The translations under genes and the position numbers were made by a program. Positions 11,640 to 43,926 of a DNA stretch of 64,000 nt are shown piece by piece. Numbering within the stretch: the stretch's first letter is position 1; each line of letters begins with the position of its first letter. The stretch comes from Brooklawnia propionicigenes (GTDB lineage: Bacteria; Actinomycetota; Actinomycetes; Propionibacteriales; Propionibacteriaceae). Where the stretch lies: positions 62,001 through 126,000 of the forward strand of contig NZ_AP028056.1 of assembly GCF_030297015.1 (NCBI RefSeq). Reading direction: 5' to 3'. The notes beneath the pieces were generated by a model, which was not told the DNA's origin, ran no database searches, and saw only the letters and a program-made list of their open reading frames with translations.

Positions 11640-11661
11640 GGGCGTCCGGCTTTCCGTTTCA

Positions 11662-14021: not shown

Positions 14022-14118
14022 GCTCCTGCTGGGGTGGTTGCCTCACGTCGAGATGTCCGGATAGCGCACGCGGCGGGGCGGGTGCCGAGCGTTCTTGCTG
14101 ATGCAAGTTGGATGAGCT

Positions 14119-14668: not shown

Positions 14669-14739
14669 CATCGACAACTCCCGACTCATCAGCACGCCTC
14701 GACGTTCCCGGGCCTTTTTACGTGACTCTCGTCGGGGTC

Positions 14740-14768
14740 TTGTATTCGTACGTGTGTTCGATTATACT
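14740..14768 (+). promoter_or_regulatory. Promoter of the DUF222/HNH gene, leaderless
   Basis: TTGTAT (14740-14745), a 17-base spacer and TATACT (14763-14768) form a near-consensus sigma-70-type promoter. The -10 ends 6 bases before ATG 14775. The surrounding bases are markedly A+T-rich compared with the rest of the window. Confidence 0.65.
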
Positions 14769-14774
14769 TTGGGT

Positions 14775-28045: not shown

Positions 28046-28725
28046 CCACCGTGGCGATCGCGGACGACTCCGCACTGCTGCGCGAGGGCTTGGCCGGGTT
28101 GCTGGAGCGCCAAGGATTCGAGATCGTGGCCCAGGAATCCCGCGCGGACGCTCTGCGGCAAACCGTGCAGCAGCTTGCCGAGCAGGGCCGGTTGCCGCAG
28201 CTACTGATCACCGACGTCCGGATGCCGCCGACGATGGCCAATGACGGTCTCCAAGCGGCGCTCGACATGAAGACGGCCTACCCCGCACTGTCGGTGCTCG
28301 TGGTGAGCCAATATGTTGCCCCGGTGTATGCGCAGCAGCTGTTCGCGCTGCCTGCCGCCCCGGACTCGGGTGGCTCGGGCTATCTGTTGAAGGACCGGGT
28401 GTCCCAGGTTGCCGATTTCATCGGCACGCTGCGCGTGGTGTGCGCGGGTGGCATGGTGATCGACCCCGAGGTGGCGCGAGCAATGATGCGCGCCAGCCGA
28501 TCGGGGCTCGGCGAACTGAGCCCTCGCGAATTCGAGGTGCTCGAACTGATGGCTCGTGGTCTGTCCAATGGCCAGATCGCTGCCGAACTGGTGCTGTCGA
28601 ACGCCGCAGTCGCCAAACACGTCTCCAATATCTTCATGAAACTCGGGCTGACCCCGGACGAAGAAAACCGTCGCGTCCGGGCAATTCTGGCTTTTCTGGC
28701 CGACGACCATGGTCCGCTGATCTGA
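28042..28725 (+). CDS. NarL/FixJ-type response regulator
   Basis: This 227-residue protein has a receiver domain with an acidic pair (IADDS), phospho-Asp in LLITDVRMPP, a Ser/Lys end (VVSQYV, LLKDRV) and a C-terminal LuxR helix-turn-helix (LSPREFEVLELMARGLSNGQIAAEL). It is coupled to the soluble kinase by a GTGA overlap. The likely target is the palindrome at 27291-27310, linking it to the divergent FtsX-type exporter. The receiver carries a small insertion around PAAPDSGGSG. Confidence 0.92.
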   Translation: MTTVAIADDSALLREGLAGLLERQGFEIVAQESRADALRQTVQQLAEQGRLPQLLITDVRMPPTMANDGLQAALDMKTAYPALSVLVVSQYVAPVYAQQLFALPAAPDSGGSGYLLKDRVSQVADFIGTLRVVCAGGMVIDPEVARAMMRASRSGLGELSPREFEVLELMARGLSNGQIAAELVLSNAAVAKHVSNIFMKLGLTPDEENRRVRAILAFLADDHGPLI

Positions 28726-28847
28726 CCGGACCGGTCGTGTTTCCATTGTGTTTCGCCTCGCAGTTCCGGCAGAAAGACCGCCGAAGTCGGCCTAGCATCG
28801 CGGCGTCGGCCAAGTATCACGGTCGCGACCATGGAGGACACGTAACC

Positions 28848-31031
28848 ATGCACATCTCTCACAGGAGTCGCGCCAGCGCGGCTAGGACCGGAGCCCTGAT
28901 CACGCTTCTGCTCGGGTTCATCGGTATGACGTTCGGCGTCTCCGCGCTCCAAGCACATGCGGAGGGGCCCGTCGAAGGCCAGACGTTCGTGATCGCGACC
29001 GACACAACGTTTGCGCCATTCGAATTCCGGGATGCATCGGGCGACATGACCGGCATCGACATGGATCTGATCCGAGAAATCGCACAGCGAAAAGGCTTCA
29101 ACGTCGACATCCAGGCTCTCGGCTTCGACGCCGCATTGCAGGCCGTCACCTCGGGCCAGGCCGACGGTGTCATCGCCGGCATGTCGATCACCGACGCGCG
29201 CAAGGAGGTCTTCGACTTCTCGGCGCCCTACTTCTCCTCGGGTGTGCAGATGGCCGTGCGGGCCGATGACTCCTCGATCACCAGCTATGAGGATCTGAGG
29301 GGCAAGACCGTCGTCGCGAAGACCGGTGCCGAGGGTCTCTCCTTCGCCCAGTCGATCGCCGACCAGTACGGATTCACCGTCAAGGCCCTGGGCAGCGCCG
29401 ACACGATGTATGCCGAGGTCGCCAGCGGCAACGCAGCCGCCGTCTTCGACGACTATCCCGTGCTTGCCTATGGGATCGCGCAGGGCAACGGGCTCAAGGT
29501 CGTGACCCCCAAGGAGCAGGGTTCGAGCTACGGTTTCGCCGTCTTGAAGGGCTCCAACGCCGAACTGCTCCAGGCGTTCAACGAGGGCCTGAGCGAGATG
29601 AAGGCCGACGGCTCCTATCACGCACTGCTGACCAAGTACCTCGGCAGTAACGCCCCTGCTGATGACGCCCAGGTCGAGGGTGTGCAGGGCAAGACCTTCG
29701 TCATCGCCACCGACACCACGTTCGCGCCATTCGAATACCGCAACGAGTCGGGCGAAATGACCGGTATCGACATCGATCTGATCAATGAGATCGCGCGACG
29801 TCAGGGATTCAGCGTCGACATCAGAGCTCTTGGCTTCGACGCGGCGCTGCAGGCGGTCACCTCGGGCCAAGCCGACGGTGTCATTGCCGGCATGTCGATC
29901 ACCGATGCCCGCAAGGAGGTCTTCGACTTCTCAGCGCCCTACTTCGACTCCGGTGTGCAGATGGCGGTCAGGGCCGACGACGACACCATCACCAGCTACG
30001 AGGATCTGAGCGGCAAGACCGTCGTCGCGAAGACCGGCGCCGAAGGTCTCACCTTCGCCCAATCGATCGCCGACCAGTACGGCTTCACCGTCAAGGCCCT
30101 CGACAAAGCCGACACGATGTACTCCGAGGTGGCTACCGGCAACGCAGCAGCCGTCTTCGACGACTACCCGGTGCTCGCCTACGGGATCAACCAGGGCAAC
30201 GGACTGAAAATCGTCACACCCAAGGAGCAGGGCTCGAGCTACGGTTTCGCCGTCTTGAAGGGCTCCAACCCGGAGCTGCTCCAAGCCTTCAACGCCGGCT
30301 TGAGCGGCATGCAGACCGACGGCACCTACCAGGCGATCATCGACAAGTACCTGAAAGCACCCGATGCCGGTGGTTCCAGTCAGTCGTTCTGGGGTCTGCT
30401 CGTCCAGAGCATGCCGGCCTTGCTCAAGGGCCTGCTGCTCACCCTCGCCGCGACCGCGCTGTCCTTGGTCTTCGCCTCCGTACTCGGCGTGGTCTTCGGC
30501 TTCCTCAAGGTCAGCGGAAACAAGATCTTGCAGTCGATCGCGTCGGTCTACGTCGACATCTTCCGTGGCACGCCACTACTGGTCCAGGCCTTCTTCTTCT
30601 ATTTCGGCCTGCCGACCGCGCTCGGCATCAAGCTCGACGTACTCACCGCAGGTGTGATCACGCTCTCGCTGAACGCGGGCGCCTACATGACCGAGATCGT
30701 TCGCGGCGGTATTCAGTCGGTTGATACCGGCCAGATGGAGGCCGCGCGCTCCCTCGGCTTGAACTGGATGCAGTCGATGCGCAAGATCATCGTTCCGCAA
30801 GCAGTCAAGATTATGACGCCCTCGTTCATCAATCAGTTCGTCATCACGCTGAAGGACACGTCGCTGCTGGCCGTGCTCGGATTCGCCGAGCTGACCTATC
30901 AGGGGCAACAGATCATTGCCCGCAACTTCCGCAGCTTCGAGGTCTGGCTGATCGTCGGTGCCATGTACTTCATCGTCATCTCCGCCCTCACGAAGCTGTC
31001 GAACCGGATCGATCGGAGGATCAACAAGTGA
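28848..31031 (+). CDS. glnP: GlnP-type amino acid ABC transporter: two fused binding domains plus permease
   Basis: This 727-residue fusion has a signal/anchor segment (about 14-36), a first SBP_bac_3 domain (about 44-268), a second nearly identical one (about 281-505) and a HisM/GlnP permease domain (about 512-727). The permease has the coupling EAA loop [21 protein letters not shown]. The layout equals Lactococcus GlnP, where two tethered domains feed glutamine, glutamate or asparagine. Here the copies are separated by 237 residues (711 bases) and keep the same ligand-site phrases ([16 protein letters not shown]), so specificity is probably equal. ATG 28848 follows GGAGGA. It is followed directly by glnQ. 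Confidence 0.93.
28980..30351 (+). repeat. Tandem in-frame duplication of the binding-domain coding region
   Basis: Two copies of about 660 bases (about 28980-29640 and 29691-30351) are offset by exactly 711 bases, joined by a short linker. DNA similarity is high by eye, with long identical runs such as around 29290-29340 versus 30001-30051, and differences are mostly at third codon positions. This indicates duplication within the gene with later drift or gene conversion. Confidence 0.85.
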
Positions 31032-31771
31032 GCGAGTCAGCCAAGACCATGATCGAGGTCACCGATCTCCACAAGTCGTTCGGTTCGAACGAGGTCCTCA
31101 AGGGCATCTCCACCACTATCAACCAAGGTGAGGTCGTCGCCGTGATCGGGCCGTCGGGCTCCGGCAAGTCCACCTTCTTGCGCTGCCTGAATCTCTTGGA
31201 AGAAGTGACATCGGGCAAGGTCATCGTCGAAGGTCGTGATCTCACCGACAAGAACACCGACATCAACCAGGTGCGCCAGAAGATCGGCATGGTCTTCCAG
31301 CATTTCAACCTCTTCCCGCACCAGACGGTGGCCGAGAACATCATGCTGGCTCCCAGCATGCTGAAGAAGCTGTCCAAGACCGAGGCGAGGAGCCGTGCCG
31401 AATCCCTGCTGGCACAGGTCAAGCTCTCCGAAAAGATCGATGCTCGACCCGCCCAGCTGTCGGGCGGCCAGAAGCAGCGCGTGGCCATTGCCAGGGCTCT
31501 GGCGATGGATCCCGACATCATGCTCTTCGACGAACCCACCTCCGCGCTGGATCCCGAGATGGTCGGTGAGGTGCTCGATGTCATGAAAGCACTGGCCGCG
31601 GCAGGCATGACGATGGTCGTGGTGACTCACGAGATGGGCTTCGCCCGCGAAGTCAGCGATCGGCTGTTGTTCATGGCCGACGGCAGGGTCGTCGAGGAGG
31701 GCGACCCGCGCGAGGTGCTCGCGAATCCGCAGAACGACCGGACCAAGGACTTCTTGGCCAAGGTGCTGTAG
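31028..31771 (+). CDS. glnQ: GlnQ-type amino acid ABC transporter ATPase
   Basis: This 247-residue ATPase has Walker [12 protein letters not shown]-loop [14 protein letters not shown], signature [10 protein letters not shown], Walker [15 protein letters not shown] and switch His (VVTHEMGFA), all in the polar amino acid transporter form. GTG 31028 overlaps the glnP stop (GTGA). It dimerises on two GlnP fusion subunits, giving four binding domains per transporter. A long perfect hairpin follows the stop and probably ends the operon. Confidence 0.95.
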
Positions 31772-31777
31772 ACGTCG

Positions 31778-31816
31778 GTCGCGGCGCCCTGCCCCTCGCG
31801 GGTGGGGCGCCGCGAC
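31778..31816 (+). terminator. GC-rich 12-bp perfect hairpin after glnPQ, no U-tract
   Basis: The arms 31778-31789 (GTCGCGGCGCCC) and 31805-31816 (GGGCGCCGCGAC) are perfectly complementary with a 15-base loop that can itself pair (CCCC/GGG). It begins 6 bases after the glnQ stop. No T-run follows, as is common for actinobacterial terminators. Confidence 0.75.
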
Positions 31817-31894
31817 CCCTATAGCGCATGAGACCGCCACGTTACGGTTGGCGAACAGCCCGCGGAGCCGGCCATCATGGCGGGCCGCGTCTCA

Positions 31895-31900
31895 TATCCT
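31895..31900 (+). promoter_or_regulatory. Probable -10 element of the DUF2126-transglutaminase operon
   Basis: TATCCT ends 6 bases before GTG 31907. It supports that start rather than ATG 31877. Confidence 0.5.
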
Positions 31901-31906
31901 GAACCG

Positions 31907-34900
31907 GTGACGATCCGCATCGCCCTCAAGCATCAAACGACATACCGGTTCGATCGGCCGACCACCGTGAATCCGCACACCGTGCGGCTGCGACCGGCTC
32001 CGCACACCCGGACCCCGATCGAGGCCTATTCGCTGAGTGTGGTGCCCGGGGACCATTTCATCAACTGGCAGCAGGACCCGTTCGGCAACTACCTGGCCCG
32101 GCTGGTCTTCCCCGAGCCGGTCAACGAGCTTCAGTTCACCGTCGATCTGATCGCCGACATGACGGTCATCAATCCGTTCGACTTCTTCGTCGAGGAATAC
32201 GCCGCCGAGATGGGCTGGAGCTACCCGGACGAGCTGGCCACCGATCTGCAGCCGTACCTGCATCAGGTGCCCGCCGAACTCGACTCGCCCGCCGATGGCG
32301 ATCTGGTCGATCAGTGGATCGCCAGCCGGCTGCCCGAATCCCAGTGGCGAGATTGCGGACTGCGCACGGTCGATTTCCTGGTGCGGCTCAATGAGGCGGT
32401 GCGCGACGACGTCGCCTACACGACCCGGATGGAACCGGGAGTCCAGACACCCGGTTATACGCTGTCCCGGGCGATCGGATCGTGCCGTGACTCGGCCTGG
32501 CTCCTGGTGTCGATTCTGCGTCGCTTCGGTCTGGCCGCCCGGTTCGTCTCCGGCTACCTGGTGCAGTTGGCGGCCGACATGGAACCGGTGGACGGTCCGG
32601 CAGGCGTCAAACACGACTTCACCGATCTGCACGCCTGGGCAGAGGTCTATATCCCGGGTGCGGGCTGGGTCGGGCTGGACGCGACCAGCGGGCTGTTCGC
32701 CGGTGAGGGCCATATCCCCCTGTCCTGCACGCCCCACCCGTCGACCGCGGCCCCCATCACCGGCAGCACCGGGATCGCCGAGGTCGAGTTCAGCTTCAGC
32801 AACGAGGTCACCCGGATCCATGAGGACGTCCGGGTCACCAAGCCACTGAGCGATGACCAGTGGGATGCCATCGACACCCTCGGGCAGGTGGTCGACGCCG
32901 GCCTGGCGAACGAGGACATCGCGCTGACGATGGGTGGAGAGCCCACCTTTGTATCTGCGGCCGAGACCGCCAGCCCGCAGTGGAACTCTGCGGCCGATGG
33001 CCCAGAGAAACGCCAACTGGCCGCCAAGCTGACTGACAAGCTGCGGCAGCGCTGGGCCGACGGCGGGCTCGTGCATCACGGCCAGGGCAAGTGGTACCCG
33101 GATGAGCCGTTGCCGCGCTGGCAGATGACACTGGCCTGGCGCACCGACGGCGAGCCGATCTGGCATCACCCCGCTCTGCTGGTCAACCCGTGGACGAAGC
33201 CCTCCGCCACAGCCGGCACCGATGCGCTGGCTCATCAGATCGCCGCCCGGCTGGGTATCGCGGACGAATTCGTGCTGCCCGTCTACGAGGACACCGTGCA
33301 GGCGGCGGTGTCGGCGGCCCAGCTGCCGTGGGGTCCGCGTCCCGACATCGACCCCGACCCCTCGGATGAGCTGCTGGCGAACGAGCACGCCCGCCAGCAG
33401 CTGGTCGATCGGCTCGATGACGCCGCCACCGAACCCGCCGGCTGGGTGATCCCGGTCTTCGTCGACCCCGACGATCCGGACGGCGGAAGCTGGGCGACCA
33501 CCCGCTGGCGTCCGCGTCGACGGGCGATCTTCCTCACCGCCGGCAGCTCCCCCATCGGGTTGCGGCTGCCGCTGAACGCGCTCGCCTGGGGAGCGGCGCC
33601 CGATATCGTCCGCAATGCCGATGGCGATGCCACACGGCCGCTGCCGGACGGGCACCAGACCAGCGTGAAACCGGCCAGAGAGCTACCGATCGAATCTGCA
33701 CCACGCACCGCTTTGGCTATCGAGGAACGCGACGGTCATCTCTTCTGCTTCCTGCCGCCGATCGACCGGCTGGACGATGCGCTGCGGCTGATCGCGACCA
33801 TCGAGGACGCTTGCGCTGCGCTGCAGACCCCGATCGTCCTGGAGGGGTACCCCCTGCCCGGCGACGATCGCCTGCAGACTCTGAGCGTCACCCCCGACCC
33901 CGGGGTCATCGAAGTGAATGTGCAGCCCACCAGCTCGTGGGGCGACCTCGTCCAGCTGACCACCACATTGTTCGAAGACGCCCGGCAGGTGGGCCTGACC
34001 ACCGAGAAGTTCGATCTGGACGGCACCCACACCGGCACTGGCGGCGGAAACCACATCACCTTGGGTGGTCCCACGCCGCAGGACTCCCCGCTGCTGCGCC
34101 GTCCCGACCTGCTGCGTTCCATGGTCACCTACTGGCAGCATCATCCCGGGCTGTCGTACATCTTCACCGGCCGCTTCATCGGGCCCACCAGCCAGGCCCC
34201 GCGGGTCGACGAGGGGCTGCCGGGCACGCTCTACGAGCTCGACATCGCCTTCACCGAGCTGGACGAGATGCTGACCGACCCGACCGTGGAGCACGACATC
34301 GCGAAAGCGATCTCCGCGGACTGGAGAACGGACGAAACGCTGGAGGAGCGACTGGAACGGCAGCGTCACTCGCAGCCCTGGCTGACCGACCGGCTGCTGC
34401 GTCATCTGCTGACCGATCTGACAGGCAACACGCACCGCGCAGAGTTCTGCATCGACAAGCTGTACAACCCCGACCGGCGCGGCGGACATGCCGGCCTGCT
34501 CGAGATGCGCGGTTTCGAGATGCCACCCCACGAGCGGATGTCGTTGCTGCAGGCGCTGCTGGTGCGCGGACTGCTGTGGCGATTCGCGCGAGAGCCGTAC
34601 CGCGCGCCGCTGGTGCGGTGGGGCACCCGGCTGCACGACCGCTATCTGCTGCCAGCCTTCGCGGCCGCCGACCTGTGGAACGTGCTCGACGAGCTCAACG
34701 CCGCACTGCCCATCAGCGAGCGCTTCGACCTCGCCTGGTTCGAGTCGTTCCTGGAGTTCCGGTTCCCCATCCTGGGCGAGGTGCAGCTGGGCGATGTCGA
34801 CCTGGAGTTGCGCCAAGGCATCGAGCCCTGGCAGGTGCTCGGTGAAGAGGTCACCCTCAGCGGCACTGCCCGCTATGTCGATTCCTCGGTGGAGCGCGTG

Positions 34901-35368
34901 CAGGTGGCGTCCACCGGCCTGATTCCGGAACGCCATCTGCTGATGGTCAACGGCGTGCCGCTGCCGCTGACCCCGGTGATCGGGCACGGCTGGGGCGTCG
35001 GGTCGGTCGGACGTTCCGACGCGCTGGCGGCCGGCGTGCGCTACAAGGCGTGGTCTCCGCCGTCCTCGCTGCACCCGACCATCGGCGTACACGCCCCGCT
35101 GCGTTTCGATCTGGTCGACAAGATCAGTGGCCAATCGCTGGGCGGTTTCCGCTATCACGTGGTGCATCCCGGTGGCCGCAGCTTCGACACCTATCCGGTG
35201 AATGCGGTCGAGGCCGAATCACGGCGGGCCGCCCGGTTCGAGCCCTACCAGACATCGGGACACCTCGAGATACCCGGCGTGTCGGATTGGGGTAGCGCCG
35301 AGTACCCGGTGACATTGGATCTACGCCGATTCGAACGTTGGCACGACGTGCTGGAAGAGAGCATCTAA
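31907..35368 (+). CDS. Large transglutaminase-like protein with DUF2126
   Basis: This ~1153-residue protein has an N-terminal bacterial transglutaminase-N domain (TIRIALKHQTTYRFDRP) and a transglutaminase core with catalytic Cys in IGSCRDSAWLLVSILRRFG, His in DLHAWAEVYIPG and Asp in VGLDATSG. A ~800-residue DUF2126 part follows. The active triad is intact, so it may act as a protease or amide/ester hydrolase or transferase. GTG 31907 matches the family start; ATG 31877 would add ten residues. It is first in a cassette with an ATP-grasp/alpha-E fusion and a second transglutaminase, the combination proposed to make or attach small peptide-like tags. Confidence 0.92.
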   Translation: MTIRIALKHQTTYRFDRPTTVNPHTVRLRPAPHTRTPIEAYSLSVVPGDHFINWQQDPFGNYLARLVFPEPVNELQFTVDLIADMTVINPFDFFVEEYAAEMGWSYPDELATDLQPYLHQVPAELDSPADGDLVDQWIASRLPESQWRDCGLRTVDFLVRLNEAVRDDVAYTTRMEPGVQTPGYTLSRAIGSCRDSAWLLVSILRRFGLAARFVSGYLVQLAADMEPVDGPAGVKHDFTDLHAWAEVYIPGAGWVGLDATSGLFAGEGHIPLSCTPHPSTAAPITGSTGIAEVEFSFSNEVTRIHEDVRVTKPLSDDQWDAIDTLGQVVDAGLANEDIALTMGGEPTFVSAAETASPQWNSAADGPEKRQLAAKLTDKLRQRWADGGLVHHGQGKWYPDEPLPRWQMTLAWRTDGEPIWHHPALLVNPWTKPSATAGTDALAHQIAARLGIADEFVLPVYEDTVQAAVSAAQLPWGPRPDIDPDPSDELLANEHARQQLVDRLDDAATEPAGWVIPVFVDPDDPDGGSWATTRWRPRRRAIFLTAGSSPIGLRLPLNALAWGAAPDIVRNADGDATRPLPDGHQTSVKPARELPIESAPRTALAIEERDGHLFCFLPPIDRLDDALRLIATIEDACAALQTPIVLEGYPLPGDDRLQTLSVTPDPGVIEVNVQPTSSWGDLVQLTTTLFEDARQVGLTTEKFDLDGTHTGTGGGNHITLGGPTPQDSPLLRRPDLLRSMVTYWQHHPGLSYIFTGRFIGPTSQAPRVDEGLPGTLYELDIAFTELDEMLTDPTVEHDIAKAISADWRTDETLEERLERQRHSQPWLTDRLLRHLLTDLTGNTHRAEFCIDKLYNPDRRGGHAGLLEMRGFEMPPHERMSLLQALLVRGLLWRFAREPYRAPLVRWGTRLHDRYLLPAFAAADLWNVLDELNAALPISERFDLAWFESFLEFRFPILGEVQLGDVDLELRQGIEPWQVLGEEVTLSGTARYVDSSVERVQVASTGLIPERHLLMVNGVPLPLTPVIGHGWGVGSVGRSDALAAGVRYKAWSPPSSLHPTIGVHAPLRFDLVDKISGQSLGGFRYHVVHPGGRSFDTYPVNAVEAESRRAARFEPYQTSGHLEIPGVSDWGSAEYPVTLDLRRFERWHDVLEESI

Positions 35369-35370
35369 AG

Positions 35371-37929
35371 TTGGCTGGCGTGAGCCAAGCCGTCGATCAG
35401 CGCATCAGCCCGGTACTGCGCGATTACGTGCAGCGCGCTGGTGGCCACGATGAGTTGGCCCATGTGCTTGCCGACCGGGACATTCTGGGATTCACTCCCA
35501 GTCTCTCCGAGGTCGAGTATCCGGGTTGGCAACGGCGGCAGCGCGCGCTGACCAGGCTGGTTCGCTCCGAGGCGATCACCTACGGCGGTTCGCGTCCCGG
35601 TGAACTGGCCAATTCCTGGTCGGTCGACGTGCTGCCGTTCATCATGTCGAGCGCCGAATGGGCCGGCCTGCAGGCCGGGCTGCGGCAGCGTGCCGAGCTG
35701 TTGAACGCCATGCTGGCCGACTTCTACGGCCCGCGCACGCTGCTGCATTCGGGCGTGGTACCCAGCGAACTGGTGCTGGGGCACCGCGGGTTCCTGCCGG
35801 CGGTCGACGGCCTGACGCTCACTGGCGATCATCAGCTGACCATCGTGGCCACCGATCTGGTGCGTGCGGCCAGCGGCTGCTGGACGGTTCTGTCCGACCG
35901 CACCCAATCGCCTTCGGGCATGGGATATGCCATGGCGAACCGGCGTTTGGTGGCCAGGGTGCTCGACCGCGACTATCGGCATGTTTCCATCCACCGGCTG
36001 CGTGGCTTCTTCGACCAGATCCGGGTGGCGCTGGAGAACACCCTGCCCCCCGGTGCAGACAGCCCGCGGGTGGCCATTCTCAGCTCCGGCACCATCAGCG
36101 AAACCGCCTATGACCAGGCCCTGGTCGCCATGCTCGTCGGCTACCCGATCGCGCAATCGGGTGACCTGCAGATCGCCGACGGCTATCTGTGGCTGCGGAC
36201 CATCGGGCGCAGTCAACCGGTCAACATCCTGCACCGCCGCCTGGACGCCGAGTATGCCGATTCGCTCGACCTGCGCTCCGACTCACTGCTCGGCATTCCC
36301 GGCCTGCTGCAGGCTGCCCGCCGGCATCGGGTATCGGTGGCCAATCATCTGGGCTCCGGAATCCTCGAGAACAACGGCCTGCTGGCATACATGGACCGCA
36401 TCGCCGAGTCGCTACTCGGCGAGTCGTTGAAGCTCCCGACGGTCCCCGCCTGGTGGTGCGGCGATCCGGAGGGGCTGGCCTACGTGAAGAGCCATCTCGA
36501 CTCGTTGATCATCAAGCCGATCTCTCGGGTCCGCGGGGCACGCGCGATTCCGGCACGCCTGCTGGACGAACAAGCACGTTCCCAGCTGCTCGCCCGCATC
36601 GATGCCGAACCGTGGCGGTGGAGCGCCCAGCAGTATCTGGAGCCCAGCACCGTGCCCGTCGTGGAGGCCCGCTCGATCGAGCCTCGTCCGATGGTCTTGC
36701 GGACATTCGGCGCCGCCGACGGCGCGTCCTACTCGTTCATGCCTGGTGGCCTCGCCCGGGTGGCCTCGAGCCCGGACCAGTGGAACATCACCAATGCAAC
36801 CGGCGCCTTCAGCAAGGACGTCTGGGTGCTGGAGGACAGCCATCGCGAGGCACCGTCGGCCGGGATCTCACCGCGTCGTCCCGCCCACCTGCCGGCCGAG
36901 GCCGCCGACCTCGGCTTGCCACCCAGCGCGGCGGAGAACCTGTTCTGGCTGGGCCGTTACGCCGAACGCACCGAGATGACCTCGCGGGTGCTGAAGGTCT
37001 CCGAGCAATTGATCGCCGACAACCTGGATCGACCCGGCACCCCGGGCCATTCGGCGATGCGGACGATGCTGGAGGCGCTGTCCATGGTCACCGGGGTGCA
37101 GCCCGGCTTCGTCGGCCAGGGCGCGGCCGAGCGGCTCGACGAGCCGCTGCCGCAGATCCGCCGGCTGCTGCTCGACGAGATAACTCAGGGCTGTGTCGCC
37201 TACAACGTGGGACGGATGGCGGCCTGCGCCGCGAACGTTCGCGAATTGCTCAGCGGCGACACCTTCAGCATCTTCAATGCGCTCAATGCCACGCTGCGGC
37301 AGGCGCGCGAGGGCGAGGATCTCCTGGCTGTGCAGCCGGTGATCAATGAGGCCCTGCGTTCGCTGCTGGCCTTCGCCGGGGTGGCCAACGAGTCGCTGGT
37401 GCGCGACGCGACCTGGGCATTCGTCGAGGCCGGTCGACGCATAGAGCGGGCCGAGCTGACCGTCCAGCTGCTGCGGCACACGGTGAGCTCGGTGACCGGA
37501 CCGGTCACCGAAGCGGTGCTGAGCGAGTCAGTGCTGAGTGCCGGCGACTCGGTGATCACCTACCATCGCCGGGTGGCGGCCAGCTTCGGGGCGGTCATCC
37601 CTGCCGAGGCCACGTTGGACCTGCTGCTGCTGGACGCCTCGAACCCGAGATCGGTCCGCTACCAGCTGGACCGGCTCATCCATGTCCTCAGCGTCGCGCC
37701 CAACCCACGAATCGAGCAGGCCGCAGCCGCGCTCGTGGCCAGTCTGGCCAGTACGAACCCGCGCCGGCTCGGCGGCAATGAGCGGCAACGCGCGCGCCTC
37801 CTGCTCGACGAACTCGATGCCGGGCTTCGCGACCTCTCTGATCAGATCCAGCAGGCACATTTTGTCACTCAGTTGCCGGCGTTCTCGTTCGCGGTGCCTG
37901 AGCGGTCGGAGGATGCGTATGGCCACTGA
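35371..37929 (+). CDS. Circularly permuted type-2 ATP-grasp fused to alpha-E domain
   Basis: This ~852-residue fusion has a circularly permuted ATP-grasp domain (about residues 1-510) followed by an alpha-helical alpha-E domain (about 530-850). The former shows WTVLSDRTQSPSGMGYAMANRR, ANHLGSGILENNGLLAYM, SLIIKPISR and PMVLRTFGAADG. The latter begins SAAENLFWLGRYAERTEMTSRVL. The first is predicted to form amide bonds using ATP; the second is a partner of unknown mechanism. In the neighbouring convergent locus the same two domains are separate genes. TTG 35371, 2 bases after the previous stop, or GTG 35380 is the start; both are weakly supported. Confidence 0.9.
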   Translation: MAGVSQAVDQRISPVLRDYVQRAGGHDELAHVLADRDILGFTPSLSEVEYPGWQRRQRALTRLVRSEAITYGGSRPGELANSWSVDVLPFIMSSAEWAGLQAGLRQRAELLNAMLADFYGPRTLLHSGVVPSELVLGHRGFLPAVDGLTLTGDHQLTIVATDLVRAASGCWTVLSDRTQSPSGMGYAMANRRLVARVLDRDYRHVSIHRLRGFFDQIRVALENTLPPGADSPRVAILSSGTISETAYDQALVAMLVGYPIAQSGDLQIADGYLWLRTIGRSQPVNILHRRLDAEYADSLDLRSDSLLGIPGLLQAARRHRVSVANHLGSGILENNGLLAYMDRIAESLLGESLKLPTVPAWWCGDPEGLAYVKSHLDSLIIKPISRVRGARAIPARLLDEQARSQLLARIDAEPWRWSAQQYLEPSTVPVVEARSIEPRPMVLRTFGAADGASYSFMPGGLARVASSPDQWNITNATGAFSKDVWVLEDSHREAPSAGISPRRPAHLPAEAADLGLPPSAAENLFWLGRYAERTEMTSRVLKVSEQLIADNLDRPGTPGHSAMRTMLEALSMVTGVQPGFVGQGAAERLDEPLPQIRRLLLDEITQGCVAYNVGRMAACAANVRELLSGDTFSIFNALNATLRQAREGEDLLAVQPVINEALRSLLAFAGVANESLVRDATWAFVEAGRRIERAELTVQLLRHTVSSVTGPVTEAVLSESVLSAGDSVITYHRRVAASFGAVIPAEATLDLLLLDASNPRSVRYQLDRLIHVLSVAPNPRIEQAAAALVASLASTNPRRLGGNERQRARLLLDELDAGLRDLSDQIQQAHFVTQLPAFSFAVPERSEDAYGH

Positions 37930-38821
37930 GCACAATGACCCACGTCGCTATCAGGTCGTCCACCGCACCAGGTACCGCTATGACGCCGAGGTGACCGCAT
38001 CGTTCGCTCGGGCTTTCCTCGTCCCGCGAGTCACACCGCATCAACAGGTACTCGACCACGATGTGGAGATCTCTCCGGCGCCGGACCTGTACGAGGTGCA
38101 CACCGACTTCTTCGGCAATCACTCGCACTATGTGGAGATCCACACCCCGCATACCCAACTTCAGGTGCGCAAGTCCGCCACCTTGGCCGTCCAGTGGCCG
38201 GCCGCCGATCTGCCGAGCATGACCATCCCTGTCGATCGGACGGTCGAGCTGGTGCACCTCGATCCCCGGATCGATCCGGTCAAGCGGGCCAGCTACCTGC
38301 TGCCGTCGCCGCTGATCGAGTTGAGCACTCCGGTGCGCGAGTTCGCGTCCGGTCTGCTGGATCCTCGGATGCCGGTGGGCGAGGCGATCGGCACGGTCTA
38401 CCACGCGATCTACGAAGGCTTCAGCTACACCCAAGGTGCCACGACAGTGGCCACCACGCTGCCCGAAGTGATCAATGCCCGGGCGGGTGTCTGCCAGGAT
38501 TTCGCCCACCTGGCGGTGGCCAGTTTCCGGGCCGTCGGGCTCCCCGCCCGTTACGTCAGCGGCTACATTGAAACCTATCCGCCACCCGGCGAGGAGAAGC
38601 TGGCCGGTTCGGACGCCACCCACGCATGGGCATCGGTCTACATTCCCGAACGCGGCTGGATCGACTTGGACCCGACCAATGATCAACTGGCTGATTCGCG
38701 CTACCTGGTGACTGCGTGGGGACGCGACTTCCGTGATGTGTCACCCCTGAAGGGCGTCATCTTCAGCGAGAGCCGGGACAGCGTTCTGGACGTGGCCGTC
38801 GACGTCACCCGGCTGGACTGA
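37919..38821 (+). CDS. Transglutaminase-like cysteine protease family protein, triad intact
   Basis: This 300-residue protein has a transglutaminase-N domain (YQVVHRTRYRYDAEV) and a core with catalytic Cys in RAGVCQDFAHLAVASFRAVG, His in DATHAWASVYIPERG and Asp in WIDLDPTN. GGAGG at 37908-37912 places the start at ATG 37919, overlapping the fusion gene by 11 bases and indicating coupling. It ends the plus-strand cassette, 7 bases from the stop of its convergent, catalytically altered homologue. It is probably a hydrolase or transpeptidase acting on the amidoligase product. Confidence 0.92.
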   Translation: MATEHNDPRRYQVVHRTRYRYDAEVTASFARAFLVPRVTPHQQVLDHDVEISPAPDLYEVHTDFFGNHSHYVEIHTPHTQLQVRKSATLAVQWPAADLPSMTIPVDRTVELVHLDPRIDPVKRASYLLPSPLIELSTPVREFASGLLDPRMPVGEAIGTVYHAIYEGFSYTQGATTVATTLPEVINARAGVCQDFAHLAVASFRAVGLPARYVSGYIETYPPPGEEKLAGSDATHAWASVYIPERGWIDLDPTNDQLADSRYLVTAWGRDFRDVSPLKGVIFSESRDSVLDVAVDVTRLD

Positions 38822-38828
38822 GACCGCC

Positions 38829-39590
38829 TCAGTTCAGCCGCTCGACGGTGACCTCGCTGGTCATCTGCACTTCACCCGACGAATCGTGGACGCCGAACAG
38901 CACCGGAACATCCTCGCGAGTGGCTCCGTAGCCGACCGCCACGTGCCGGGAATCGGGCGCGCAACCCAACCGCGGATCCCAGGCGACCCACCGGCCATCC
39001 CAGTACTGCAACCAGTTGTAGACCTGTGCGGGACGCTTCACGCCACGCACCAGTTCGGTGGGGATGCTGTAGCCGGCCACATAACGCGAGGGAATCCCAG
39101 CCCAGTGCAGCGCCGTCATCGTTGCGGGCACCACGCCACCGTCGTCCGCGTCGATCAGCCCGCGATGGCCAAGTTCTTGCACGAACTCCGCGGGTGAAGC
39201 CGCCTCGGCCCGCCAGCTGCGCCACTGATCGGGCACTTCCAGGCCCTCGGGCAGCCGCAGATGATCACAGAATCGCTCGTCCACCGACGGATCCTTCAGC
39301 GCCTCCCAGCCGACACCACGTCCGTTCGGAGCAGCTGGTGCCGAATAGTCCAGTTCGGTGGCCGCCGTCACGCGCATCCGAAGATGCGTCTCGGGCACGT
39401 TGAACATCACCACTGCCGTGCCCCAGTAGTCGAAATACTCATGCCGCCAGGCCGACGGTGTGATGCTCACCACCGGATGCAGCAGCGACTGATTCGGCAG
39501 GTAGCAGGGGGTCATCCTCGCTTCGCCATGCCACGCGTGAATCGGCTCATCGGACTCAACGATCACCGTATGAACAAGTTTCAGTCGCAT
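38829..39590 (-). CDS. Transglutaminase-like protein lacking catalytic Cys and His
   Basis: This 253-residue homologue keeps the fold phrases LHWAGIPSRYVAGYSIP and RWVAWDPRLG, including the Asp position. Where active relatives have Cys (GVCxDxAHL) it reads DDGGVVPATMTAL, with no Cys in the segment. Where they have HAW it reads YNW. Both nucleophile and base are thus replaced, so it is a predicted pseudoenzyme. The start ATG 39590 has GGGAGG in front and overlaps the alpha-E stop by 10 bases. It is the last gene of a minus-strand cassette with alpha-E and ATP-grasp. It may be a scaffold or regulator; this is inference. Confidence 0.88.
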   Translation of the reverse strand: MRLKLVHTVIVESDEPIHAWHGEARMTPCYLPNQSLLHPVVSITPSAWRHEYFDYWGTAVVMFNVPETHLRMRVTAATELDYSAPAAPNGRGVGWEALKDPSVDERFCDHLRLPEGLEVPDQWRSWRAEAASPAEFVQELGHRGLIDADDGGVVPATMTALHWAGIPSRYVAGYSIPTELVRGVKRPAQVYNWLQYWDGRWVAWDPRLGCAPDSRHVAVGYGATREDVPVLFGVHDSSGEVQMTSEVTVERLN

Positions 39591-40525
39591 ACCAGAACCT
39601 CCCTGTGCCAGACCGAGACCTCGATGCCGGCGAAGTACCGGTCGGTCAGTTCCCCACTCACCTGGGCGCAGGCAACCTGCACCTGCTCCATCCGGTCTTC
39701 CAGCCCCTCGATCAGTTCGGACGCATCGAGGTACTCCATCCGGCTGCGGGTGCGTCCCACGAGTCTGGCGGTCGGATCTTGTCTGGCCTTGACGTTGATG
39801 GGGTCCAACTCGCCGAGCGAGTCCTGGACGGCCTGCAATCCGTAGACCAGCGAGTGCGGGAAACGCCGGTCGACGATGAGGAACCGGGCCGCGTCCAGAT
39901 AATCGCCTTCGCCGAAGTAGGTCCGGTTGAAGGCGTGATGGCCACCGACCGCCCGCAGCGCCCTGGTCCACGCGACCAGAGTGTTGCCCTCCACCGCCAC
40001 CGTGCTGATCAGCCGCGACGTCATGTCGACGCGCTCCAGCGACTGACCCAGCAGGAAGAAGTGATAGGCCTCGTCGTGCACCATGGTCTGGCTGGCCAGC
40101 CCGGCGATCTGCACGCAACGCAATCGCACCAGCTGCAGTGACGCGGTTGGCCGGATCGCCGTGAACGACGCGGAGAAGACCTCGTTGTACGTGGTGTTGA
40201 TGGCCTCCCACAACTCCGGCGATATCGTCTCGCGAATGCGGCGGGCCGACTGTCGCACCGCCGCGACGATCGCGCGCACCGAGCTGGGGCTGTCCGGGTC
40301 GTACCACAGGTACCGCAAGACCGCGCCGGCATCGATGAGTTCGTCGGTGTGCTCCGGCATGTCGAGTCCCATCGCGCCCAGCAGGCTGGACGATGCCGCC
40401 CGTTCGTCCACCGTGGGGTCTTCGAGGAACTGCTGCAGTTTCACTTCGAGAATGCGGCTGATGTTCTCGGCACGCTCCAGGTACCGCCCGATCCAGAACA
40501 GCGAGCCAGCAATGCGGCTGAGCAT
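39581..40525 (-). CDS. Alpha-E domain protein (DUF403)
   Basis: This 314-residue all-helical protein starts with the alpha-E hallmark LSRIAGSLFWIGRYLERAENISRILEV and contains VHDEAYHFFLLGQSLERVDMTSRLI as a second related repeat (split across helices). The gene overlaps the ATP-grasp stop by one base (TGATG) and the pseudo-transglutaminase start by 10 bases. It matches the C-terminal half of the 35371-37929 fusion. Alpha-E proteins always travel with circularly permuted ATP-grasp enzymes; their biochemical role is unproven. Confidence 0.92.
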   Translation of the reverse strand: MLSRIAGSLFWIGRYLERAENISRILEVKLQQFLEDPTVDERAASSSLLGAMGLDMPEHTDELIDAGAVLRYLWYDPDSPSSVRAIVAAVRQSARRIRETISPELWEAINTTYNEVFSASFTAIRPTASLQLVRLRCVQIAGLASQTMVHDEAYHFFLLGQSLERVDMTSRLISTVAVEGNTLVAWTRALRAVGGHHAFNRTYFGEGDYLDAARFLIVDRRFPHSLVYGLQAVQDSLGELDPINVKARQDPTARLVGRTRSRMEYLDASELIEGLEDRMEQVQVACAQVSGELTDRYFAGIEVSVWHREVLVCD

Positions 40526-42057
40526 CAGGACTCCTGACTCTGAGTAGCGACGACACCGAACATATCTCGTTCATCGGTCATGTCCGGCGGGCCCCAGAAC
40601 TGGGCGCGTGGCTGACTGCCCACGCCTTCGTCCATCAATACCCAGGTGTCTTTCGAGCCGCCGCCCTGGGAGGAGTTCACGATCAGCTGTCCCTCGCCAA
40701 GCGCGACCCGGGTCAACCCACCGGGCAGCACCTTCACGCTCTCGCCGTCGTTCACGGCGAACGGCCGAAGATCGACATGGCGAGCACCCAGCTCACCGTC
40801 GATCATCGTCGGCACCGTCGACAGTTGGACGACCGGCTGAGCGATCCAGTTGCGGGGCTCCTCCAAGATCGCGGCTCGCAAGATGTCCAACTCCTTGGGG
40901 CTCGCCTTGGGGCAGATCACCACACCCTTGCCACCCGAACCGTCCACCGGCTTCACGACCATCTCCTCCAGCCGGTCGAGCACCTCGACACGATCCTTCG
41001 GATTCTCCAGCCGCCAGGTATCCACCCCGGCCAGGATCGGCTCGGCATCCAGATAGTACCGGATCAGGTCCGGAACATAGGTGCATATCAGCTTGTCATC
41101 AGCCACTCCGTTGCCCACGGCGTTGGCGATCGTCACTCCCCCGGCCGCGGCGACGGCAAGCACCCCGGCCACTCCGAGCACCGAATCCGGACGGAAGTAC
41201 ATCGGGTCGAGGAAGTCATCGTCCACCCGGCGATAGATGACATGCACCGGCTGGGCGCCCTTGGTCGTACGCGCCTTGACCTGCCCGCTCTCGCAGAACA
41301 GGTCGCTGCCCTCCACCAGTTCGACGCCCATCATGCGGGCCAGCAGCGCATGCTCGAAATAGGCGGAGTTGTGCACACCGGGTGTCAGCACCACCACGGT
41401 CGGCTCGCTGATGCCCTCCGGAGCCGCCGCCCTCAGCGCCTCCAGCAGCAGCTGCGGGTATCCGTGCACCGGCCGCACCTGATACCGGCCCATCCACTCG
41501 GGGAACGCGGTCGACATGGCGCGGCGGTTCGTCATCACATAGCTGACACCGCTGGGAATGCGGACGTTGTCCTCCAGCACCCGGAAGACTCCGGACGCGT
41601 CGCGCACCAGGTCGGTACCGGAGACGTGGATACGTACACCATTCGGCGGCCGGATGCCGTGCGCCACCCGGTGGTAGTGCGTCGAGGTGGCGACGATGCG
41701 CCGCGGTATCACCCCGTCGCCGAAGACCTTGCCGGAGCCGTAGACGTCGGCGAGGAAAGCCTCCAGCGCCGTCACTCGCTGCTGGACGCCGGCCTCGATC
41801 TGCGCCCAGTCGGCGGCCGTGATGATGCGCGGCACGACATCGAGTGGGAAGGGGCTTTCGACACCGCCCACATCGAAGGTGACGCCCTGATCGAGGTACG
41901 TACTGCGCACATAGTCGGCACGATCGATGAACTCGGTGTTCGGCATATCCGACATGAGCTCGTAGGACAGACCATAAGACGACCGGACCTCCTCGCCGTC
42001 GAACATCTCGTCGTAGACGCCTTCGGGGGGGTGATACCGATTTACCAGGCTCTCCAT
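40525..42057 (-). CDS. Circularly permuted type-2 ATP-grasp amidoligase-like protein
   Basis: This 510-residue protein has the family's order: VLEDNVRIPSGVSYVMTNRR, VHNSAYFEHALLARMMG, ANAVGNGVADDKLICTYVP, MVVKPVDGSGGKGVV and RHVDLRPFAVNDG. The ATP-binding and metal-site residues look intact. It is predicted to form peptide-like amide bonds. ATG 42057 is preceded by minus-strand TAGGAT with a 6-base gap. It heads the three-gene minus-strand cassette and is divergent from the PAC2 gene, with 173 bases between. Confidence 0.92.
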   Translation of the reverse strand: MESLVNRYHPPEGVYDEMFDGEEVRSSYGLSYELMSDMPNTEFIDRADYVRSTYLDQGVTFDVGGVESPFPLDVVPRIITAADWAQIEAGVQQRVTALEAFLADVYGSGKVFGDGVIPRRIVATSTHYHRVAHGIRPPNGVRIHVSGTDLVRDASGVFRVLEDNVRIPSGVSYVMTNRRAMSTAFPEWMGRYQVRPVHGYPQLLLEALRAAAPEGISEPTVVVLTPGVHNSAYFEHALLARMMGVELVEGSDLFCESGQVKARTTKGAQPVHVIYRRVDDDFLDPMYFRPDSVLGVAGVLAVAAAGGVTIANAVGNGVADDKLICTYVPDLIRYYLDAEPILAGVDTWRLENPKDRVEVLDRLEEMVVKPVDGSGGKGVVICPKASPKELDILRAAILEEPRNWIAQPVVQLSTVPTMIDGELGARHVDLRPFAVNDGESVKVLPGGLTRVALGEGQLIVNSSQGGGSKDTWVLMDEGVGSQPRAQFWGPPDMTDERDMFGVVATQSQES

Positions 42058-42063
42058 GCTCGA

Positions 42064-42069
42064 ATCCTA
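42064..42069 (-). promoter_or_regulatory. Probable -10 element, leaderless ATP-grasp/alpha-E operon
   Basis: Minus-strand TAGGAT ends 6 bases before ATG 42057. Confidence 0.5.
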
Positions 42070-42170
42070 AGGAAAACATGTTTCCACCATGTTGCGGTTC
42101 GTTGACAAGCACGGTCCCCTGGGCGACAGAGCACTCGGTCACCTGCCCTCCGGATACAGTGGAAGGAATA

Positions 42171-42199
42171 CTGACAGCCTGATCCGCGTTTGATATCCT
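42171..42199 (+). promoter_or_regulatory. Promoter of the PAC2 gene
   Basis: CTGACA (42171-42176), a 17-base spacer and TATCCT (42194-42199) fit a vegetative promoter; TG precedes the -10. A ~25-base leader with GGAGGTGGTG leads to ATG 42231. Confidence 0.65.
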
Positions 42200-42230
42200 G
42201 ATCGGTCGAACAAGTAACGGAGGTGGTGAC

Positions 42231-43157
42231 ATGCTCGACCCTGCTGAACTGTTCAATCCGGAGCCACATCTGGAATCTGACGAATACCCACAGCCCGACG
42301 GTGAGCGTCCCACACTACTGATCACACTTGGAGGTTACGGGGATGCCGGCGAGGCTCAGGAGCTGATCGGCCGCCAACTGTCGGAGCGGCTGGCCAACCA
42401 CAAGCTGGGCACTTTCGACATCGATCAGCTCTATGACTACGCCGGACAGCGTCCGCAGATCATCTTCGATCGCGATCACTTCACCGACTACCAGAAGCCG
42501 GAGATCGCGCTGCACAAGGTGACCGACGACGCTGGTGCCGGGTTCTTCTGGCTGTCCGGCCCCGAACCCGCGCTCCAGTGGGAGCGGATGATCGCCTCCA
42601 TCGAACACGTGATGGATGGCTTCGACATCGGACGCGTGCTGATCCTTCAGGCAGTGCCGGCGCCCACGCCGCACACTCGGCCCATTCATGTGTCAGGCTT
42701 CGCCTCCGACCCCGTCTTGTTGGGAGATCGGGACGGTCTGCCGGGCACCTTCCAGATGAGTTCGCCGTTCATCGGTCTGCTCACCTTGCGGCTGGGTGAA
42801 CACGGCAAGGACGTCATTGGTCTGGCTGCTCATGTGCCCTACTACGTGGCCGAGTCGGGTTATCCCGATGCCGCGATCGCGTTGCTCCAGCAGGCCAGCT
42901 CGGTGAGCGGGTTGGCGTTGCCCAGCGACGGGAGCCTCGCCCAGTCGTCCGAGACAGTGAATCAGACGATTGAGCAGCAGGTCGCCGCTTCGGCTGAGGC
43001 CCAGCAGGTGGTCGCACGGCTGGAGCAGCAGTACGAGCAGTACATGAGCCATCGCCAGATCACCCCGCGTGCCAACGTGCCCACCGCCGAGGAGATCGGC
43101 GCCGAGGTTGAGGAATTCCTCAAGGGCCTGGACGACGGCGATCAGCCCACAGACTGA
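42231..43157 (+). CDS. PAC2 family protein (proteasome assembly chaperone-like)
   Basis: This 308-residue soluble protein has the PAC2 fold features: RPTLLITLGGYGDAGEAQELIG, QRPQIIFDRDHFTDY, a VMDGFDIGRVLILQAVPAPTPHTRP segment and HVPYYVAESGYPDAAIALLQ. In eukaryotes and archaea PAC2 proteins assist proteasome assembly; actinobacterial members have no firm role. A glutamate-rich C-terminal tail follows a helical QQVAASAEAQQVVARLEQQYEQY stretch. A strong Shine-Dalgarno and a leader distinguish it from the leaderless genes around it. It lies beside the amidoligase loci, a possibly functional link. Confidence 0.88.
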   Translation: MLDPAELFNPEPHLESDEYPQPDGERPTLLITLGGYGDAGEAQELIGRQLSERLANHKLGTFDIDQLYDYAGQRPQIIFDRDHFTDYQKPEIALHKVTDDAGAGFFWLSGPEPALQWERMIASIEHVMDGFDIGRVLILQAVPAPTPHTRPIHVSGFASDPVLLGDRDGLPGTFQMSSPFIGLLTLRLGEHGKDVIGLAAHVPYYVAESGYPDAAIALLQQASSVSGLALPSDGSLAQSSETVNQTIEQQVAASAEAQQVVARLEQQYEQYMSHRQITPRANVPTAEEIGAEVEEFLKGLDDGDQPTD

Positions 43158-43182
43158 GTCTGCCGACAGCCCACGACGCCGC

Positions 43183-43926
43183 TCACAGCGTCCACGCCCG
43201 CACTCCCCCGGCGATGCCGGCGGCATTCGGGACGACCACCACGTCATCCCCGAGCGCGATCAGCGCTCCGGGGGTGATACGGCGCGAGTTTCCGCCGCCC
43301 AGATAGACCCGGTCCCAGACGAAGACCGGACGCAACGAGTCGACCACCCGGCGGACGCGGCGCGACCACATCGCATTGCCGAGCCGGCGGCGTTCCGGCT
43401 CACCGATGTATTCGTCGTAGGTCGACATCCGTATCGGCCCGCGGGATATCTCCAGATGCGGGGCCAGATGCCCGCCGTCGAAGTGGGCCGAGCCCAGGCC
43501 GGTTCCCAGCGTGAGCACCACTTCGATTCCGGTACCGGTGATGACCCCGGCGCCGTGCACCTCGGCATCATTCAGCACCTTGGCGGGCATCCCGAGGGAG
43601 TCGGAGACCACCGACTGAAAGTCCAGACCCTCCCACTCGGTCACCAGTTGCGGTAACACGCGAGTGCGTGGCCCGCGTTCGGTGATGTAGTGCGGCGTGC
43701 TGATCACCACTCCGTGACGCAGCATCCCGGGCATGCCGATGGTTATCCGTTGGGCAGGCGGCAATTGGGCCGCGAGCTCTCGGAAACACTCGATGAGTCG
43801 CGCCGGCGGCAGGGGGTAGGGGGTGGGAATGCGGATGACGGGGGCTTTCATCGTTCCGGCCGCGTCCAGGACCGAGGCCTTGAGTCCGGACCCTCCGCAG
43901 TCAACGGTCAACGTAGTGATCTGCAC
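43183..43926 (-). CDS. ROK family protein, polyphosphate glucokinase-like
   Basis: This 247-residue kinase-like protein has the ROK phosphate motif VDCGGSGLKASVLD at the start, NDAEVHGAG with the catalytic Asp and LTLGTGLGSA. The final VWDRVYLGGGNSRRI matches polyphosphate/ATP glucokinases. The open frame runs further upstream, but GTG 43926 aligns with the family start and with TACAGT 6 bases before it. The usual zinc-site cysteines of ROK repressors are missing, fitting the PPGK branch. It is divergent from an MFS gene with starts about 22 bases apart. Confidence 0.82.
   Translation of the reverse strand: MQITTLTVDCGGSGLKASVLDAAGTMKAPVIRIPTPYPLPPARLIECFRELAAQLPPAQRITIGMPGMLRHGVVISTPHYITERGPRTRVLPQLVTEWEGLDFQSVVSDSLGMPAKVLNDAEVHGAGVITGTGIEVVLTLGTGLGSAHFDGGHLAPHLEISRGPIRMSTYDEYIGEPERRRLGNAMWSRRVRRVVDSLRPVFVWDRVYLGGGNSRRITPGALIALGDDVVVVPNAAGIAGGVRAWTL

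What the first reader, a model, noticed from the sequence alone, without database searches (positions are those of the whole stretch)
31907..42057. Two convergent, differently built amidoligase/transglutaminase loci
Six genes form two opposing cassettes that share domain types. The plus strand has DUF2126-transglutaminase, ATP-grasp/alpha-E fusion and transglutaminase. The minus strand has ATP-grasp, alpha-E and a transglutaminase homologue. The stops of the two transglutaminase genes are 7 bases apart. Circularly permuted ATP-grasp plus alpha-E plus transglutaminase is a known conserved set, proposed in comparative genomics to make peptide-like products or tags. The product is not known to me. 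Having both forms back to back suggests two linked routes, or one system with a catalytic and a regulatory arm.
Basis: partly seen in the sequence, partly recalled or inferred. Interest (0 to 1): 0.75.

Follow-up and report, generated by a model that had tools for sequence, protein, structure and literature searches.

The report
Split ligase system with pseudoenzyme halves
Two facing gene sets in this actinobacterium look like two halves of one widespread but uncharacterised peptide-ligase system, in which one half carries an inactive-looking copy of the ligase and the other an inactive-looking copy of the transglutaminase-like enzyme.

Summary
The six genes are real, at the stated coordinates, stops 7 bases apart. 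They belong to a known, functionally uncharacterised set (circularly permuted ATP-grasp, alpha-E, transglutaminase-like, DUF2126). Three results change the picture. (1) The plus cassette's ATP-grasp, fused to alpha-E, lacks the Glu and Asn of the E-D-N motif. Of 80 fused relatives from many phyla, 80 lack the Glu (one has Asp) and 79 the Asn; 30 of 30 standalone ATP-grasps in the same loci keep both. It is probably a conserved pseudo-ATP-grasp. (2) The minus cassette's transglutaminase has lost its Cys-bearing segment. Among loci read in the family sample, only the convergent ones show this (window species, one congener, G082 of another genus); 79 of 80 genomes whose fetched minus-type locus holds no plus cassette keep Cys-His-Asp. 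(3) In 28 of 80 named loci active ATP-grasp, alpha-E, pseudo-ATP-grasp fusion and transglutaminase lie in one row on one strand. So the cassettes are best read as halves of one system, mostly split in the Actinomycetes sampled and re-joined here. In the family sample 53 of 147 genomes have the plus cassette, 52 of them also the minus one. Substrate and product remain unknown.

The parts
31907..35368 (+). transglutaminase-like domain fused to DUF2126 (putative amidoligase); triad motifs GSCRDS / DLHAWAE / GLDATSG present (GTG start; ATG possible at 31877)
35371..37929 (+). fusion of a circularly permuted pseudo-ATP-grasp (Glu, Asn of the E-D-N motif replaced by Ser, Arg; Gly loop eroded) with an alpha-E domain; start 35338 or 35371
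37919..38821 (+). transglutaminase-like protein with intact Cys-His-Asp
38829..39590 (-). pseudo-transglutaminase: fold kept in the model, Cys-bearing segment missing, His replaced, Asp kept
39581..40525 (-). standalone alpha-E protein
40525..42057 (-). standalone circularly permuted ATP-grasp with intact E-D-N motif and Gly loop
42231..43157 (+). PAC2-family gene (context): in five related loci it follows cassette A on the same strand with no cassette B between

Best explanation
The six genes encode one ATP-dependent amide-ligation system made of an active and an inactive copy of each key enzyme. The minus-strand ATP-grasp (40525-42057) with its alpha-E partner is the working ligase. The plus-strand ATP-grasp/alpha-E fusion is a conserved pseudo-ATP-grasp that I infer pairs with it as a regulatory or substrate-holding subunit. 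The plus-strand transglutaminase-like proteins supply the papain-type Cys-His-Asp activity that trims, transfers or reverses the amide. In this lineage cassette B lies reversed between cassette A and the PAC2 gene; its own transglutaminase lost the active-site segment but was kept as a protein. Shown: gene content, motif losses, phylogeny, co-occurrence, single-row loci elsewhere. Inferred: complex formation and division of labour. Chemistry (ligation of an amine to a peptide or peptide-like carboxylate, in the manner of glutathionylspermidine synthetase/amidase or YgiC/YjfC) is inferred from fold only; the substrate is unknown.
For: Fused ATP-grasps lack Glu and Asn in 29 of 29 rows (Actinomycete sample); in named genomes of many phyla 80 of 80 lack the Glu and 79 of 80 the Asn. 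Standalone ones keep both in 35 of 35 and 30 of 30. The Asn site is Arg in 72 of 80 fused copies, a conserved replacement rather than drift. Minus transglutaminase: Cys segment missing in the window species, G016 and G082, whose ATP-grasps form one clade at 100/99; 79 of 80 genomes whose fetched B locus holds no cassette A keep the triad. Single-strand rows AG-AE-(TG/DUF2126)-fusion-TG in 28 of 80 loci: 22 of 40 Pseudomonadota, 1 of 2 Planctomycetota, 1 of 1 Spirochaetota, 2 of 2 Poribacteria, 1 of 24 Actinomycetota, 1 without phylum. Family sample: 67 of 147 genomes have alpha-E, 52 two copies, 14 only B, 1 only A (G137, 72% complete). Two further linked lineages in the family: G034 and g25 (across a contig break). 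Cassette A is followed by PAC2 without B in G122, G093, G132, G052, G055. The fusion model (pLDDT 86.7) matches 3n6x, glutathione synthetases, GspS, YgiC, YjfC.
Against: No activity, complex or product is known for these proteins. Pull-downs with Anbu as bait found no specific interaction with the other proteins of a related Anbu operon (PMC6376114, passages). The motif loss has soft spots: the fused copy of a Thiomargarita contig (L217) keeps the Asn and that of a Pseudonocardia contig (L206) has Asp for Glu. G327 (100% complete) has only a truncated fusion-type alpha-E and no standalone copy. B-transglutaminase loss is not a rule of linkage: in G034 and g25 the linked B copy keeps the triad. 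The A tree does not unite G082 with the window genus: G082 pairs with G137, and the AU test was not finished. Lost metal ligands make catalysis unlikely but do not prove inactivity.
Confidence: 0.6

Rival explanations
1. Two separate routes: each cassette is a complete ligase/transglutaminase system with its own product, and they merely became neighbours here.
For: In most Actinomycetes sampled the two lie at separate loci; B alone occurs in 14 of 67 alpha-E genomes of the family sample; 50 of 80 named loci show no standalone ATP-grasp in the stretch held, though 23 of the loci have under 6 kb before the fusion.
Against: The fused ATP-grasp lacks the Glu in 80 of 80 named loci; cassette A occurs without B in 1 of 53 family genomes (G137, 72% complete) and lies in one row with the active ATP-grasp in 28 of 80 loci.
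Confidence: 0.15
2. The minus transglutaminase is a decaying redundant gene without function; the rest works as a four- or five-gene system.
For: It is the fastest-changing of the five genes compared with G016 (46% identity against 77% for the ATP-grasp; NG86 dN/dS about 0.42 against 0.22); in the single-strand rows no separate transglutaminase gene follows the standalone alpha-E except where the DUF2126 gene is split.
Against: Open frame kept in three species, with differences still concentrated at third codon positions (0.38, 0.38, 0.57 against G016); confident transglutaminase-fold model (pLDDT 93.1); its start overlaps the alpha-E gene by 10 bases. dS is near saturation, so the ratio is weak evidence.
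Confidence: 0.3
3. The fusion ATP-grasp is an active enzyme with other metal ligands or other chemistry, not a pseudoenzyme.
For: Asp149, Lys469, Asp470 and Gln407 equivalents are kept (28, 28, 29 and 27 of 29); Arg is strongly conserved at the Asn site (72 of 80); one copy keeps the Asn and one has Asp for Glu.
Against: Glu absent in 80 of 80 and Asn in 79 of 80, Gly loop eroded, Asp321/Lys322 equivalents lost in 29 of 29.
Confidence: 0.2

Closest known systems
ATP-grasp / alpha-E / transglutaminase sets of Iyer et al. 2009 (paper not held; known here from citing papers) and the Anbu operon (ATP-grasp, alpha-E, transglutaminase, Anbu)
   Same: Same domain types and order for the minus cassette; nitrogen-starvation expression of Anbu and phosphate release from ATP by an Anbu-operon ATP-grasp are reported (PMC6376114, abstract and passages)
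   Different: No proteasome-family (Anbu-type) gene near it: the genome's two PF00227 matches lie at 3.195 Mb, the cassettes at 94-104 kb; minus transglutaminase dead; second cassette with pseudo-ATP-grasp fusion and DUF2126 facing it
Five-gene row AG, AE, TG-DUF2126, ATP-grasp/alpha-E fusion, TG, as on Enterobacter plasmid NZ_CP116251.1
   Same: Same five protein types, annotated in the plasmid record as two ATP-grasp, one alpha-E and two transglutaminase-family proteins, and seen in Pseudomonadota, Planctomycetota, Spirochaetota, Poribacteria
   Different: One strand and one row there; here two convergent cassettes plus an extra dead transglutaminase
E. coli glutathionylspermidine synthetase/amidase and YgiC/YjfC peptide-spermidine ligases
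   Same: ATP-grasp fold match of the fusion model (2io7_B E 6e-8, 7uk8 E 2e-7); pairing of a ligase with a papain-like hydrolase (recalled for GspS)
   Different: Sequence identity 11-15%; substrate here unknown; ligase and hydrolase are separate genes and one ligase copy is inactive-looking
Rlo operon of Pseudomonas (ATP-grasp RloC, membrane-bound inactive transglutaminase RloB, protease RloA)
   Same: An inactive transglutaminase encoded with an ATP-grasp protein; mutations in these two rescue loss of the Rlo proteases (PMC12239564, abstract and passages)
   Different: RloC is compared with RimK, RloB is a seven-helix membrane protein; no alpha-E was mentioned in the passages seen

Membership tests
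CP ATP-grasp / alpha-E / transglutaminase set | circularly permuted ATP-grasp, alpha-E and transglutaminase genes side by side | tested here: met
   Pfam matches in both cassettes
CP ATP-grasp / alpha-E / transglutaminase set | ATP-grasp with E-D-N motif and Gly loop | tested here: met
   met by the minus protein; not met by the plus fusion
CP ATP-grasp / alpha-E / transglutaminase set | catalytic Cys-His-Asp in the transglutaminase | tested here: met
   met by 37919-38821 and by the DUF2126 protein; not met by 38829-39590
Transglutaminase core family PF01841 (for 38829-39590) | score above curated cut-off and catalytic triad | tested here: not met
   18.8 bits against cut-off 23; no Cys, His replaced
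Anbu operon | Anbu peptidase gene beside the three genes | tested here: not met
   PF00227 has two matches in the genome, both at 3.195 Mb, none near the cassettes
Glutathionylspermidine-synthetase-like ligase | ATP-dependent amide bond formation | not testable with these tools
   needs enzymology

The most novel reading that the evidence does not exclude
A bacterial heteromeric ligase built, across phyla, from an active ATP-grasp and an obligate pseudo-ATP-grasp/alpha-E partner; in this lineage both pairs of paralogues have split roles (active plus dead ligase, active plus dead transglutaminase), so the two convergent cassettes each contribute one working enzyme and one pseudoenzyme to a single complex.
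Probability: 0.4. Interest if true: 0.7.

Novelty: new variant of a known kind. Interest (0 to 1): 0.5.

Why it matters
The system is widespread, its function is open, and it has been discussed as peptide synthesis, protein tagging or a nitrogen-starvation function. If the fused copy is a pseudoenzyme that depends on the standalone copy, assays of single proteins, or of the three-gene set alone, may miss the working complex. The window lineage is a natural experiment that shows which transglutaminase can lose its active site.

Tried and rejected
Literature: searches in the held open-access library gave no listing that reports a pseudo-ATP-grasp in the fusion or a functional study of the plus cassette (listings read; passages read only for the papers named in the report, and for PMC8407117). 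The key paper (Iyer et al. 2009) is not held, so it may already describe inactive versions; the novelty claim is limited by this.

Rejected or corrected: a first tree of the fusion was wrong because a script overwrote some fusion rows with standalone rows; one search supersedes it. The typing used the motif itself to name A and B and is circular for the motif claim, which rests on (typed by best phmmer score; typed by fusion to alpha-E on the same ORF). In one search, 3 rows (split or contig-edge) were dropped, rows with 4 or more of 6 positions missing were dropped, transglutaminase rows under 90 bits were dropped. 'Linkage kills the B transglutaminase' was considered and weakened: G034 and g25 are linked with an intact triad, while one Chromatiaceae contig (L222) shows an independent loss (Ser/Arg for Cys/His). 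One A-type transglutaminase with Ser for Cys was seen in Georgenia (L233). The family genomes added only (beyond the 147) were not read for the triad. One search timed out; redid it with ORFs of 140 aa or more. Rfam search of 31000-43500: no match. No terminator-like or promoter-like site in 38500-39200. NCBIfam: no match for the six proteins.
Full report
What is there. The six genes stand as described. Plus cassette (A): transglutaminase-DUF2126 (31907-35368), ATP-grasp/alpha-E fusion (start 35338 or 35371, to 37929), transglutaminase (37919-38821). Minus cassette (B): ATP-grasp (42057-40525), alpha-E (40525-39581), transglutaminase-like (39590-38829). Neighbours within each cassette overlap or abut, as expected of operons; the facing stops are 7 bases apart and no terminator-like site was found in 38500-39200.

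Active sites. I aligned standalone and fused ATP-grasps from fetched Actinomycete loci, typed by their best score against the two window proteins. Glu162, Asn164 and Arg166 of the minus protein (the E-D-N-x-R motif) are invariant in 35 of 35 standalone rows and absent from 29 of 29 fused rows; Asp321 and Lys322 behave the same, and the Gly loop is eroded. In these, 80 of 80 ATP-grasps fused to alpha-E lack the Glu and 79 of 80 lack the Asn, while 30 of 30 not fused keep both. The exceptions: a Thiomargarita contig (L217) keeps the Asn, and a Pseudonocardia contig (L206) has Asp for Glu. The Asn position is Arg in 72 of 80. In yeast glutathione synthetase, of the same superfamily, four acidic residues hold the two magnesium ions (PMC2845819, passages); that the E-x-N pair is the matching metal site in glutathionylspermidine synthetase is recalled, not tested. 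The AlphaFold model of the fusion is confident (pLDDT 86.7, pTM 0.86), and its nearest solved folds include 3n6x, eukaryotic glutathione synthetases, the fungal ligase Cp1B, GspS, YgiC and YjfC. So the fold is kept and the motif is not.

The minus transglutaminase. In the window species (two genomes), its congener G016 and G082 the protein lacks a segment of about 15-18 residues that carries the catalytic Cys; by alignment the His is replaced in the window species and G082 and kept in G016; the Asp is kept. Of 80 genomes whose fetched B locus holds no cassette A, 79 keep Cys-His-Asp and one (G058) has its parts in two frames; one of the 80, G046, is probably linked across a contig break. A search of the 198 held genomes of the family with the window protein gave these four genomes as its best matches; G082 stands only modestly above the next (100.8 against 82 bits), so its place rests on the missing segment and on the ATP-grasp tree. 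The protein is still read: frames are open, differences concentrate at third codon positions, and NG86 dN/dS against G016 is about 0.42 (0.32 for the plus transglutaminase, 0.22 for the ATP-grasp; dS is high, so this is only indicative). Its model keeps the transglutaminase fold (pLDDT 93.1; best match 3isr).

One system or two. In the family sample, alpha-E occurs in 67 of 147 genomes: 52 have two copies, 15 one. Of the 52, 50 were typed as one A and one B by their ATP-grasps; G064 and G090 count as both by an A-type ATP-grasp and a standalone-type alpha-E match. Of the 15, 14 are B and 1 is A (G137, 72% complete). Under independence about 24 genomes would hold both (66 x 53 / 147); shared descent inflates such a contrast. 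G327, outside the family and 100% complete, has a truncated fusion type only. In the named loci, standalone ATP-grasp, alpha-E, optional TG-DUF2126, fusion and transglutaminase lie on one strand in 28 of 80 loci: Pseudomonadota 22 of 40, Actinomycetota 1 of 24, Planctomycetota 1 of 2, Spirochaetota 1 of 1, Poribacteria 2 of 2, phylum unknown 1 of 1; two more (L194, L222) have both types on opposite strands; 23 of the rest have under 6 kb before the fusion. The same row is annotated on an Enterobacter plasmid. DUF2126 is optional: it is found in 29 of 147 family genomes, and G016 has cassette A without it. These facts favour one system whose ligase is the standalone ATP-grasp.

How the locus arose. 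The B-type ATP-grasps of the window species, G016 and G082 form one clade with 100/99 support among 84 rows. In the A tree (59 rows) the window species and G016 unite at 100/100, but G082 pairs with G137 and the deeper order is weak. G082 belongs to a genus (g12) that is probably Propioniciclava, as a contig of G132 has the length of a named Propioniciclava contig. In five genomes (G122, G093, G132, G052, G055) cassette A is followed, on the same strand, by a PAC2 gene without B; in the window species and G016 cassette B lies reversed between A and PAC2. This is what insertion of B behind A would give. In the genus, 3 of 8 genomes (two of them one species) carry alpha-E, with both cassettes, and 5 carry none. 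Linkage also arose in other forms: G034 (B minus, A plus, other orientation, triad intact) and g25 (A then B on one strand, read across a contig break in two draft genomes). A Chromatiaceae contig (L222) shows a divergent A/B pair whose B transglutaminase has Ser and Arg in place of Cys and His.

Mechanism. I think the standalone ATP-grasp activates a carboxylate with ATP and joins it to an amine; the fusion is a pseudoenzyme partner that positions alpha-E or the substrate, or senses nucleotide; the papain-type transglutaminase transfers or hydrolyses the amide. The ligase/hydrolase pairing resembles glutathionylspermidine synthetase/amidase (recalled). Nitrogen starvation is a plausible cue: ATP-grasp (DUF404/DUF407) and alpha-E (DUF403) genes stand in the NtrC regulon table of Burkholderia cenocepacia at -8.2 and -9.4 (PMC5491218, passage), Anbu is highly expressed under nitrogen starvation (PMC6376114, passage), and an Acidithiobacillus plasmid copy lies close to ntrC and glnL. 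None of this names the substrate. The genome has two proteasome-family genes, far from the cassettes, and no Anbu-type gene beside them.

Known or new. The set itself is known from comparative genomics (Iyer et al. 2009, seen only through PMC5666114, PMC3597751 and PMC6376114, passages). I found no printed note of the motif loss in the fused copy or of the dead transglutaminase in the searches listed under Tried and rejected, but the key paper could not be read. I file it as a new variant of a known kind.

Noticed in passing
28440-31771: One ORF with two closely similar solute-binding domains fused to a permease, next to its ATPase, directly before the DUF2126 gene; in the congener G016 the relatives found lie elsewhere in the fetched stretch.
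   Followed up: partly
L256 (NZ_CP116251.1) 6603-15794: A complete five-gene row of this system on a 90 kb Enterobacter roggenkampii IncFII plasmid, with IS elements on both sides and arsC upstream.
   Followed up: partly
L257 (NZ_CP005987.1): An Acidithiobacillus caldus plasmid carries transglutaminase, ATP-grasp and alpha-E genes close to ntrC and glnL, hinting at nitrogen control.
   Followed up: no
L222 772-2331: Chromatiaceae B-type transglutaminase with Ser and Arg in place of Cys and His beside a divergent cassette A: an independent loss.
   Followed up: partly
L233 10870-13344: Georgenia cassette-A transglutaminase with Ser in place of the catalytic Cys.
   Followed up: no
L035 13382-14242, L060 9320-10237, L068 4969-6633, L056 1781-2698: An additional transglutaminase of another type (GVCRD motif) lies next to cassette A in several genomes.
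   Followed up: no
phage records MT835541.1, MT835738.1, CAKLQH020000004.1, CAKLQF020000002.1: Relatives of the ATP-grasp fusion occur in 4 phage records (27.9 to 28.9% identity), annotated DUF404 in two of them; the other two have no annotation.
   Followed up: no
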